Source: Isoetes taiwanensis (Eukaryota; Streptophyta; Lycopodiopsida; Isoetales; Isoetaceae). Taken from it: a stretch of DNA of 64,000 nucleotides. Below the pieces are notes generated by a model. The model was not told where the DNA came from. It saw only the letters and a list, made by a program, of their open reading frames with translations, and did no database searches. Shown one piece after another: positions 43,681 through 47,724 of the stretch (positions are counted from its first letter, which is position 1; each line of letters opens with the position of its first letter). Location: contig JAJEKV010000084.1 in NCBI GenBank assembly GCA_021234155.1, positions 2,560,545 through 2,624,544 on the forward strand, in the 5' to 3' direction. Both the position numbers and the translations under genes were made by a program.

Positions 43681-43980
43681 GAGAGAGAGAGAGAGAGAGA
43701 GAGAGAGAGAGAGAGAGAGAGAGAGAGAGAGAGAGAGAGAGAGAGAGAGAGAGAGAGAGAGAGATAGATAGTAGTTTTAACGTCACGCCACTAGGCAGCA
43801 TCCAACTGGACATGTGACCACACACCACACTACATTGCTTGGTTGGGCCCTGCCCCCAACCACCTTACATTGCGTCTGTTGGGATTTGACCCCCAACAGT
43901 ACCGAGTGCGATTCTGGGCGGTCTCGAACTCGAGACCACATTGCTAAGGAACTAGTGTGTTACCACTAGACCAAACGCCC
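43681..43980 (-). mobile_element. tRNA-derived SINE with (CT)n tail, unit 4
   Basis: Minus-strand copy of the same SINE. Its tail is the 84-bp (GA)n at 43681-43764 plus a TATC repeat; the body is about 211 bp, with A and B boxes as in unit 2. Its head (43980) touches a 20-bp (AG)n (43981-44000), which is the 3' tail of LINE-B. Confidence 0.82.
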
Positions 43981-44000
43981 AGAGAGAGAGAGAGAGAGAG

Positions 44001-46493
44001 AAATGAAATGCTTTTTATTCACGTCTGCAGACCACCAGGTCTATGAGACGTTCAACAAGTACATTCAACATTATAGAAAATATCATCTAATGCATCTTCA
44101 GACAATAATGCATTAGCCTCTTCTCCCAAATCTTCTCTCATCAATGAATTATGGCTAATTTGTTCTCTCATATTCAGGACATCTCTTATGAATTTTCCAA
44201 TAAGTTTACCTTCCAAATTAAAAAACTCCAATAGAGTTGACAGAGATATTGTAACTTGTTTGGGATCTCCACATAAAATTTGGGCATCTTAAGAGCACAT
44301 GTTGCTTTCGTCCTCCACTTCTGCATATTACAATTCTTGCAAAGCCTCATTTCATGCGGGATATCCCCCATCTACCAACTTCCACCCCAAGCTTTGCGAA
44401 CTAAGTCTCATTATGCTAATGGAGTGTCTAAGTTTCAAAGAAATACCTTCTCTCAGATATTTGGCCTCTTGGAGTTACGGGTTAATATCTTTGTCGGTAG
44501 AACTCTTTCTTTATTTAGGAACTCTCCAATTCTTCCTAGTAACATGTTACGTAACCCACGGATATCTTTATGATGTATATACAAATCCTGCATATTTAGT
44601 CCCCACTTCCACATCCATTCCTCCACATCAAGCATACCAACCCTTCCCCTTGTCTCCTCTATTGCCAAACGTGGCAAACTATCATCAACTCTTTCAAATC
44701 GTATCTTATAAAGATATGTGAGCAACTTACACAAAGCTTCTGCCTCAACAGGCAACATACCACGATACGCGGCGGCATATCATACCGGAGTTTGCGCTTT
44801 TGTACCCAATTCCGTTCTCGAAACTTTTTTGCACTTTCTCTCTACCTTTTTCCATGTGTCACCACCAAGCACGGCCCCAAACCTCACATCCATATAGCAA
44901 TCTTTATCACAAAGCGTCTTATATAACATCTTTTCATGTTAAAATTCCAAATTTCCGCTTTACCACCGGCGTTGCATCTTTGTATAAGGTTTTCAGGCCG
45001 CATTCACTCGTGCTCTCTGACCATATTCCAAATAGGACTCTTGTCAACTTCCACTCCCGGATATTTATAATGAGTTTACCAACTCCACCGACATGCCCTT
45101 ATAATAAAATGCCGGATGTTACATCTTATTAGCTCCAAAGACTATCAATTTTGTTTTGCTAAATTCACTTGCATCCCTTTGCTATCACAAAAATGCGAGA
45201 GCATCAAATGTTTTGCATCCCCATTCTTGGCGAGATAGGATGACTCGTCATCTGCATAAAAGCAAAAAGCAATATCATATAGCCATTCACCAATGTCCCA
45301 TCCCCTCCATGTTCCATCATCCGTTTTTCCGGCTCATCGATAAACAACCCAAACAATGTAGGAGATAAGGGCAGCCACAGCGACTCGGTATTACTCACCA
45401 CAACATCTTCACATTCATTGACATAAGGGGAGAAAGTTGTACCAAGACTTTCTCATATAATATCTTGACCGCTTGTCTTAATTCCATTGGAACCCCGATT
45501 AGCTCCATTAGTTGCGGTATGTCTATTTCTTTTACCGTGTCAAAGGCTTTAGCATAATCCACAAAAAGAGCATATAAAGGCCTTTTTTTGCCAATAACTG
45601 AATCTATCATGGCACGCAGAGTTATCAAATGATCTATGGTAGACCGCTCAGGTCTAAATCCTGCTTGCCCCATGGCCCTAACTCCATTCCCTTCCGCCCA
45701 CATACTAATCTTAGAGTTTAGCATTGTAGCTACAAGTTTTGCAAAAAAACTGCAAATCATAATCATTCTATAATTACCTGGATCCTTATCGTCTCCTGCC
45801 TTGTATAATGGGATTACTCTGTTGACTTGCCACGAGCGGGGAAAGCCCTCTTTTAAAGCTGCATTTACTAGCTTCAACAACATTGCATGGGTTAAACCTC
45901 CGGCCCATTTGAACATCTACTGAACCAACCCACATTGCATCGGTGCCTTACCATTTGCCAGCTTACTCAAACCTTGTTCCAAATCATCGGGAGTGAACTC
46001 ATATTCACCAGCAGAGAGATATGTGATCTCTTCTATATCAGAAATACCAGATACATGATAAAGCTTATGCTTGGCCTAATAAGGCATTAGTTTCTAAAAT
46101 CGCTTCTTGTTTTACCTTTGGGTTTCAATCTGTTCCAAAATTGCTTTGGATTCAAAAAGAATAACTCCTCCACCATTTTTCTTTGCTTCGATATACATAT
46201 TTTTCTTTTTTAGACTTAGTCGACTTTATGTATTCCTTTTTAGCTTTTCCCTTTACGCCTTTAGCCTTTTGAACTCGCCCTTTTTTTCTTTACAATCCCC
46301 ATCAAACCATGCGTTACAAGGAAGACCCTTCAATTTTCGTTTTGATATGAAGCACGCGGTGGCAGCATCCAAAACCATTTTGGCAAGCTTCTCACTAAGG
46401 GTATTAACATCCTCTGGCCAATCTATTTCAAGTGCTTTTTTTTCACACAATTTCTCATATTGATCCGCCTTGTTATATTGCATATTAATCCTT
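44001..46493 (-). mobile_element. LINE-B, 5'-truncated copy, unit 4
   Basis: About 2.5 kb of a second LINE family on the minus strand. In order: linker (EKLCEKKALEIDWPEDVNTL), RT (WQVNRVIPLYKAGDDKDPGN, QAGFRPERSTIDHLITLR, FVDYAKAFDTV), thumb, and a C-terminal Zn-knuckle region (MRLCKNC). The YADD box is degraded here (about 45225-45255). The 3' UTR ends ..AAAAAGCATTTCATTT and continues as (CT)n. No endonuclease domain remains. Its 5' end (46493) abuts the (CT)n tail of LINE-A, so the two share one microsatellite boundary. Many frame shifts. Confidence 0.87.
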
Positions 46494-46542
46494 AGAGAGA
46501 GAGAGAGAGAGAGAGAGAGAGAGAGAGAGAGAGAGAGAGAGA

Positions 46543-47532
46543 ATGTGTTATGTCTATTGGGAGGCCTCAAGGGCCTATTAGACAACAAAAATTACACAAT
46601 GTCATAAAACAATAGATGAGTTTCCGAGTCCTCATCTAGCTCATCACTCTCGCTCAAAATCTCCGTATCTACATCAACTGGTTGAGATTCTAGATATGTA
46701 TCTCTAATTTGTAGCAACTCAATCAGATACTTCCCTATGATGTCACCATGTAGCATAAAGAATGAAGAGAGGTCCCCACACTGAATTCCATATTTTGCCC
46801 GGAGTTCCTTGTAAGCACTACATCGTAACAATGTATGATCTTCATCTTCTACTTGTGCTGTGTCACATAATTTGCAATATCTCAGATGTCTAGGTAATAT
46901 GTGTCCCCATCTCCCAGTCTCCACACCCAAGTGGTGTGAGCTAAGTCTTATCCTGCAAATTGCATGTCTCTTCTGTATAGATATATTGTCCCTCAGGTGT
47001 CTAGCTTCTCCCATGTCAGGGTTGATATTCTGCCTATACAAGATCATTTTGGTCTTTGGTTGCTTCCACATTTTCCTATGCACTCTTTGCATTATCCATT
47101 GTCTCAAATCCGAGTCCACTTGGATTATTTCCTCCCATTGGATTTCCCACTTTCCAAGCCACTTCGTTACATCATGCAATAAGCCTTTTAACTCCTTTTT
47201 AGTGATTCTTGAGTCATCCATATCTAGCACCTTCTTAAGATCTGAAAACACATCTCACAATTGCTTCCCCTTCTAGAGGCATAAGCCCACTCTTCACTAG
47301 CATCATGGGATATGGTGTTTGAGCTTTGACCCCTAATTCTAGTCTCAAGAACTTCTTCAAGACCCTGTTCAATATCATCCCATAAACATTGTGGGAGACC
47401 CGCCCCCAAATCTCACATCCATATAGCACCACACTGCACGAGACTGTTGGAAACAATTTTACCTTTAAATGCCATGACCAAAGATGTGATCTCCTGCACA
47501 TGCTCTGCAATGCATACAAAGCTCGTTGCCAC
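46543..47532 (-). mobile_element. LINE-A, 5'-truncated copy, unit 4
   Basis: Same family and orientation as 18966-19940. The C-terminal 219 codons are open (46592-47251), ending in the YCKLCDTAQVEDEDHTLLRC knuckle and HLLFYDIV. It extends about 50 bp further 5' than the unit 2 copy (RALYALQSMCRRSHLWSWHL). It is followed 3' by (CT)n (46542-46494) and preceded 5' by the 192-bp (AG)n at 47533-47724. Confidence 0.87.
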
Positions 47533-47724
47533 AGAGAGAGAGAGAGAGAGAGAGAGAGAGAGAGAGAGAGAGAGAGAGAGAGAGAGAGAGAGAGAGAGAG
47601 AGAGAGAGAGAGAGAGAGAGAGAGAGAGAGAGAGAGAGAGAGAGAGAGAGAGAGAGAGAGAGAGAGAGAGAGAGAGAGAGAGAGAGAGAGAGAGAGAGAG
47701 AGAGAGAGAGAGAGAGAGAGAGAG
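47533..47724. repeat. Pure (AG)96 microsatellite
   Basis: 192 bp uninterrupted, at the same place relative to LINE-A as the (GA)105 in unit 2. It is followed by TTTTTTTAAGAGAGAGAATCC and then host flank. Ser-Leu and Arg-Glu frames across it are not genes. Confidence 0.97.

What the first reader, a model, noticed from the sequence alone, without database searches (positions are those of the whole stretch)
43681..47724. Two LINE families and a SINE share (CT)n tails and are chained head-to-tail
On the minus strand the order is (CT)n, LINE-A, (CT)n, LINE-B, (CT)n, SINE, (CT)n, host. All three are in the same orientation and none ends in poly(A). LINE 3' UTRs run straight into CT repeats, as does the SINE after a short TATC run. 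This suggests a LINE/SINE partnership recognised through a CT-repeat tail, with preference for inserting into CT/AG tracts, so that each insertion leaves a new landing site. Microsatellite-directed non-LTR elements are known in animals; I know of no described plant LINE/SINE group built on (CT)n.
Basis: partly seen in the sequence, partly recalled or inferred. Interest (0 to 1): 0.88.

Follow-up and report, generated by a model that had tools for sequence, protein, structure and literature searches.

The report
Plant LINEs nesting in CT repeats
Two related plant jumping-gene families end in pyrimidine repeats rather than poly(A), and most of the copies sampled here lie in CT repeats, often in the tail of an earlier copy; the small element beside them mostly lacks a CT tail and is next to CT repeats only in a minority of its copies.

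Summary
The chain is real: minus strand (CT)96, LINE-A, (CT)24, LINE-B, (CT)10, SINE, TATC then (CT)n, head-to-tail, no poly(A). LINE-A and LINE-B are 5'-truncated copies of two related LINE families (47% protein identity). Of 34 LINE 5' junctions examined, 20 have a CT run within 60 bp upstream (0.95 expected), 0 an AG run. Of 48 LINE 3' ends, 36 run into CT within 60 nt, 0 into A8. Eighteen element-to-element joints through pyrimidine tracts are all head-to-tail. Two empty paralogous sites in the window hold only TATCTCTTATCC, and one filled paralogue lacks LINE-B, so the chain probably grew stepwise. The SINE part fails: CT follows 19 of 659 exact SINE 3' ends within 33 nt, and CTCTCT precedes 38 of 256 exact SINE starts. 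Best reading: target-primed insertion of pyrimidine-tailed LINEs, favoured at CT/AG tracts and at earlier tails, with the SINE an occasional guest. Template jumping remains a live rival for some chains.

The parts
47533..47724 (-). (CT)96 tract at the 5' side of LINE-A
46543..47532 (-). LINE-A, 5'-truncated copy (about 990 bp, from within the RT-coding part to the 3' end)
   Evidence: family RT in L010
46494..46542 (-). (CT)24 between LINE-A and LINE-B
44001..46493 (-). LINE-B, 5'-truncated copy (about 2.5 kb)
43981..44000 (-). (CT)10 between LINE-B and SINE
43769..43980 (-). SINE, 212 bp, cloverleaf-like head
43680..43768 (-). TATC then (CT)n after the SINE
3586..3601 (-). paralogous empty site 1 (GGTTTATCTCTTATCC)
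32474..32489 (-). paralogous empty site 2 (same 16 bases)
18641..20151 (-). paralogous filled site without LINE-B: CT, LINE-A (to 18966), CT, SINE (18916-18702), CT
52275..55502 (+). rearranged inverted paralogue: part of LINE-A, CT, LINE-B, CT, SINE (55259-55470)
55544..56146 (-). other part of LINE-A of the rearranged paralogue, opposite orientation

Best explanation
LINE-A and LINE-B belong to related non-LTR retrotransposon families whose copies end in short pyrimidine repeats (TTTC, CATTT, CT) instead of poly(A). The pyrimidine end of the RNA pairs with a nicked AG strand and primes reverse transcription, so copies go in where the target reads CT on the element's sense strand: at least a short TCTCT, most often a CT tract. 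Every new copy ends in pyrimidine repeats and so offers the next landing site, which gives one-way head-to-tail chains. The SINE has an unrelated 3' end, is mostly not CT-tailed, and uses CT tracts in a minority of insertions. Shown: tails, 5' junction bias, strand rule, empty and partly filled sites. Inferred: the priming step, that CT tracts existed before most insertions, and that LINE enzymes move the SINE.
For: 20 of 34 5' junctions in CT, 0 of 34 in AG, 0.95 expected; 16 of 26 for truncated copies alone by the 21-bp test, with differing truncation points. In the subset found with a CT-free query, 4 of 8 (L049-L056). 36 of 48 3' ends in CT, 0 of 48 A8. 18 pyrimidine joints in 14 loci, all head-to-tail. 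Unique sequence runs straight into CT before the LINE at several loci, e.g. L010, L024, L041, L051. Empty paralogues hold only TCTCT; the filled paralogue without LINE-B groups with the empties (supports 0.86, 0.91).
Against: 14 of 34 junctions fail the 60-bp test and 13 of 34 the 21-bp test. Three LINE 3' ends run into ordinary sequence after a short tail (L053, L056, L058). The sample is small and was chosen by similarity to the window (40 of 5619 and 40 of 724 candidates scored; 10 of 18 new places fetched). No external empty sites were seen, so CT expansion after insertion or template jumping could make part of the signal. No target duplications could be shown.
Confidence: 0.66

Rival explanations
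1. Template jumping: in one event the reverse transcriptase leaves one RNA and jumps to the pyrimidine tail of another, so several RNAs are joined head-to-tail and the 5'-most CT is a copied tail stub, not a pre-existing microsatellite.
For: Gives head-to-tail joints only and fits very short stubs, such as a 48-bp LINE-B end in L037 and about 20 nt of filler at the window site; the window's target had no long CT tract.
Against: One filled paralogue lacks LINE-B. Long CT tracts directly preceded by unique sequence would need jumps that copied nothing but tail.
Confidence: 0.2
2. Secondary effects only: CT tracts expand by slippage from short tails, and exchange between CT tracts brings elements together; insertion itself has no CT preference.
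For: CT tract lengths vary widely; LINE-B could have been lost from one paralogue by exchange.
Against: Does not explain CT at 5' truncation points that differ from copy to copy, nor the lack of AG.
Confidence: 0.1
3. One reading: LINEs and SINE form a pair that recognises a shared (CT)n tail.
For: SINE starts are preceded by CTCTCT at 38 of 256 places, about 32 of 250 collapsed, against 0.35% in the window outside the chains; LINE-to-SINE joints at three loci (L001, L034, L049).
Against: 19 of 659 SINE 3' ends have CT within 33 nt, against 31 of 48 LINE ends within the same distance. CTCTCTCT directly precedes only 13 of 256 starts, 5 of them this array. The AG control for SINE starts was not run.
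Confidence: 0.04

Closest known systems
Microsatellite-targeting non-LTR elements of animals, e.g. (TG)n-specific Togen of fish (PMC4640811, passages)
   Same: LINEs found in a dinucleotide repeat; the target offers many sites.
   Different: Togen is discussed there with NeSL relatives (RLE type, as I read the passages); here LINE-B has an APE-type endonuclease, the host is a land plant, and the preference is strong but not strict. (TC)n families of Kojima and Fujiwara 2004 are known to me from memory only; that paper was seen only as a reference entry.
Flowering-plant L1- and RTE-clade LINEs (PMC3747384, sections 4.1 and 4.4)
   Same: Plant LINEs; simple repeats at the 3' end.
   Different: Almost all described L1-clade ends are poly(A) and RTE ends TTG or TTGATG; here pyrimidine repeats and CT-tract insertion.
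Telomere-repeat LINEs TRAS/SART of insects (recalled, not looked up beyond a mention of SART1)
   Same: APE LINEs nesting head-to-tail in a simple repeat.
   Different: Specific for telomeric repeats; here a dinucleotide repeat, and a short TCTCT was enough at the window site.

Membership tests
Non-LTR (LINE) retrotransposon with APE endonuclease | Reverse transcriptase domain | tested here: met
   RVT_1 E 9e-32 (B-type, L035) and 2e-31 (A-type, L010)
Non-LTR (LINE) retrotransposon with APE endonuclease | APE-type endonuclease N-terminal to RT | tested here: met
   Exo_endo_phos E 1.3e-8, above cut-off, in B-type L035; A-type copies were not scanned for it. The endonuclease region alone had no meaningful match to solved structures
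Non-LTR (LINE) retrotransposon with APE endonuclease | 5' truncation at variable points | tested here: met
L1 clade | RT phylogeny within L1, L1-type ORF1 | tested here: inconclusive
   No tree with reference clades was made. ORF1 Transposase_22 E 0.059, below cut-off; no ORF1 homologue; no RNase H in L035 ORF2
Microsatellite-specific LINE | Most insertions in one simple repeat | tested here: inconclusive
   20 of 34 in CT: a preference, not strict specificity
SINE | tRNA-related head with internal promoter boxes | tested here: inconclusive
   Cloverleaf-like fold of the first 68 nt, z -4.1; ARAGORN finds no tRNA; two weak Rfam matches (E 0.043 and 0.6), neither at gathering score
SINE/LINE pair with common (CT)n tail | SINE copies end in the LINE's tail | tested here: not met
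   19 of 659

The most novel reading that the evidence does not exclude
A group of plant APE LINEs lives in CT/AG tracts as a habitat. Full-length copies have almost no 5' UTR of their own (in seven of eight the ORF1 ATG lies 1-12 nt after a pyrimidine tract), so the CT tract or the upstream element's tail supplies promoter and leader, while the downstream tail supplies the next landing site; a non-coding 1.2-kb element and a SINE use the same sites. One simple repeat would then solve both target choice and expression.
Probability: 0.22. Interest if true: 0.75.

Novelty: new variant of a known kind. Interest (0 to 1): 0.5.

Why it matters
Flowering-plant LINEs are described as ending in poly(A) or TTG-type repeats. 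A land-plant LINE group that prefers a dinucleotide repeat and lands in earlier tails would mean that microsatellite targeting also arose with an APE-type LINE in plants, and would explain how long CT tracts and LINE chains build up together. One window holds empty, partly filled and filled paralogues, which makes the question whether target choice comes from the endonuclease or from RNA-DNA pairing at the nick directly testable.

Tried and rejected
Rejected: that the window's LINE pieces are whole units with a fixed 5' end. In one search many matches began at the same query position, but only because the query is truncated there; the copies continue upstream. Rejected: that the SINE is generally CT-tailed. 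The T repeat was first read as a foldback target with a CT loop (notebook); one search showed a 1182-bp unit with CT outside both ends. Led nowhere: ORF1 homologue search (none); endonuclease region against solved structures; tRNA and Rfam searches. Literature: searches returned no paper; some returned 3, 1 and 2; three of these were opened, the others seen as listing only. Searches failed. Not done: the AG control for SINE starts; a count of TATC tails on the SINE (not completed); LINE 3' ends genome-wide; a clade tree. Structure prediction was not tried: its stated rule does not list loci from the fetch from genomes.

Rows dropped before the 5' count: 14 LINE-A copies whose 5' end lay outside the held stretch or was interrupted (L009, L012, L013, L015-L018, L022, L023, L025, L044, L053, L057, L058), two loci with internal LINE-B pieces (L047, L048), and the paralogues of the window chain (L027-L030), counted once through L001. 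L002-L008 repeat later loci. Other LINEs seen in flanks were not counted. The L014 junction was moved by hand; starts of full-length copies were moved to the ORF1 start. The Fisher value for 3' ends compares a 60-nt LINE window with a 33-nt SINE window and is not used. Distinct places and the 18 joints (of 43 neighbour pairs listed; many of the others are pieces of one element) were counted by hand.

Full report
Setting. The window lies in a 1.658-Gb assembly of 1110 contigs. Among the 120 listed relatives of the LINE-B RT region, named plant proteins come from the liverworts Calypogeia and Riccia, from Taxus and from the fern Adiantum (a few others are labelled as animal or bacterial). A land plant outside the flowering plants is likely. 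The size fits Isoetes taiwanensis (mean chromosome 150.9 Mb in PMC10541799, passages, times 11, my inference), but that is a guess and was not tested.

Observation. Both LINEs are truncated copies. LINE-A-type copies elsewhere extend at least about 1.4 kb further upstream. LINE-B-type copies reach about 4.6 kb, with an ORF1 of about 420-435 codons (L033, L032) and an ORF2 with APE endonuclease and RT and no RNase H match. The APE domain was shown for the B type only. The two families share 47% protein identity over 572 residues, so they are related families rather than one.

3' ends. Of 48 LINE 3' ends held (31 A-type, 17 B-type), 36 have CTCTCTCT within 60 nt, 31 within 33 nt, and none has A8 in the first 30 nt. 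A-type ends often pass through TTTC or TTC repeats and B-type ends through CATTT repeats before CT. Some have only the short repeat (L053, L056, L058), so the element's own tail is a short pyrimidine repeat; a long (CT)n can be target remnant, slippage product or both.

5' ends. Of 34 LINE 5' junctions, 20 have CTCTCTCT or TCTCTCTC within 60 bp upstream; 0.95 would be expected at the 2.8% per-strand background of the same loci outside the elements, and the opposite phase (AG) occurs at 0 of 34. With CTCTCT within 21 bp it is 21 of 34, and 16 of 26 for truncated copies alone. In the eight junctions found with a query free of CT it is 4 of 8. Because truncation points differ, the CT cannot be a conserved 5' part of the element. 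The preference is strong but not strict. The strand rule is what target-primed reverse transcription from an AG primer would give (inference).

Chains. One search lists 43 neighbour pairs no more than 320 bp apart. In 18 of them, in 14 loci, the gap is at least 68% pyrimidine on the element strand and the upstream element reaches within 14 bases of its 3' end; all 18 run head-to-tail. Two more (L036, L042) look similar but the gap includes start-codon or CTCC sequence. The one pair in opposite orientation (L044) is not joined by pyrimidines.

Empty sites. The window is a tandem array with units of about 15 kb. At two places the sequences that flank the chain are adjacent: minus strand GGTTTATCTCTTATCCTTAGTAG near 3595 and 32480. 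The pre-insertion target therefore probably held only TCTCT. Filled paralogues: 18.6-20.2 k with LINE-A and SINE but no LINE-B; 43.7-47.7 k with all three; one outside the window (L029) with all three; and a rearranged inverted one at 52.3-56.1 k. A tree of 1.7 kb of downstream flank separates the two LINE-B-bearing copies from the LINE-B-free and empty ones (supports 0.86 and 0.91), which fits stepwise growth. The tree is unrooted, upstream the empty copies match over only about 230 bp, and loss of LINE-B by exchange between CT tracts is not excluded. Between target and first CT tract, two filled copies carry about 20 nt of filler that resembles the last bases of these elements, perhaps the stub of a first insertion; too short to prove.

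The SINE. It is numerous: 256 exact copies of its first 22 nt and 659 of a 23-nt piece at its 3' end, no match in the reversed-pattern controls, and 37 of the 40 matches scored start from 99.5-100% identity outside this array or nearly so (printed as 100%). CTCTCTCT directly precedes 13 of 256 starts, 5 of them in this contig's array. CTCTCT lies within 21 bp upstream at 38 of 256 places, about 32 of 250 after collapsing arrays on C1094 (5) and C1030 (3). That is well above the 0.35% of the window outside the chains but far below the LINEs' 21 of 34. At the 3' end CTCTCTCT follows within 33 nt at 19 of 659 places, 4 of them this array; in 13 of the 19 it comes after TATC repeats. So the SINE is not generally CT-tailed; in the window it has CT because it sits in the LINE tract. 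The AG control for SINE starts was not run, so part of the 5' excess is unproven.

Full-length starts. Eight B-type copies reach ORF1 (L031-L034, L036, L037, L041, L042). In seven the ATG lies 1-12 nt after a pyrimidine tract; in L041 the start codon is not found there. Five have CT of at least four units, one CTCTCT, two CCCT- or CTCC-type tracts; in five the tract follows another LINE's 3' end (L032, L033, L034, L036, L042). The element thus has almost no 5' UTR of its own. That the tract acts as promoter or leader is speculation.

Alternatives. Template jumping onto pyrimidine tails also gives head-to-tail chains and short stubs and is the main rival; it explains less well unique sequence running straight into long CT tracts before a LINE and the missing LINE-B in one paralogue. 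Slippage and exchange alone do not explain CT at varied truncation points. Some differences between paralogues look like assembly errors, so ages were not estimated.

Relation to known elements. Microsatellite-targeting LINEs are known in animals, for example (TG)n Togen of fish (PMC4640811, passages). Flowering-plant LINEs are described with poly(A), TTG or TTGATG ends (PMC3747384, sections 4.1 and 4.4). My literature searches found no report of plant LINEs in CT repeats, but they were few and several failed (failures 91, 92, 95, 102), so absence from print is not established. I rate it a new variant of a known kind.

Noticed in passing
L042:918-2099 (minus); similar ends in L009, L011, L014, L015, L031, L032, L034, L035, L037, L040: A 1182-bp non-coding repeat (T) with 15-bp inverted ends (13 of 15) and CT tracts outside both ends; the 13 ends I accepted by eye all abut CT, and L014 has a 43-bp piece of it between two CT tracts, as if it too were a CT-tailed retroposon.
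   Followed up: partly
window 1-64000: Tandem array of about 15-kb units in which empty and filled versions of the chain site alternate.
   Followed up: partly
window 26886-28313: Two neighbouring 19-bp minisatellites whose units look like reverse complements of each other, a large imperfect palindrome.
   Followed up: no
L038:1834-5469: Open frame of 1212 codons in which an unrelated N-terminal part runs into the LINE-B reading frame.
   Followed up: no
L045:2194-4490: LINE-B fragment without CT at either side, flanked by inverted repeats, as if carried inside another element.
   Followed up: no
SINE starts in G000, e.g. C1078:7386874, C1045:5342511: Several SINE copies have an extra CGTCT or GGGCGTCT before the start used here, so the true 5' end may lie a few bases upstream.
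   Followed up: no
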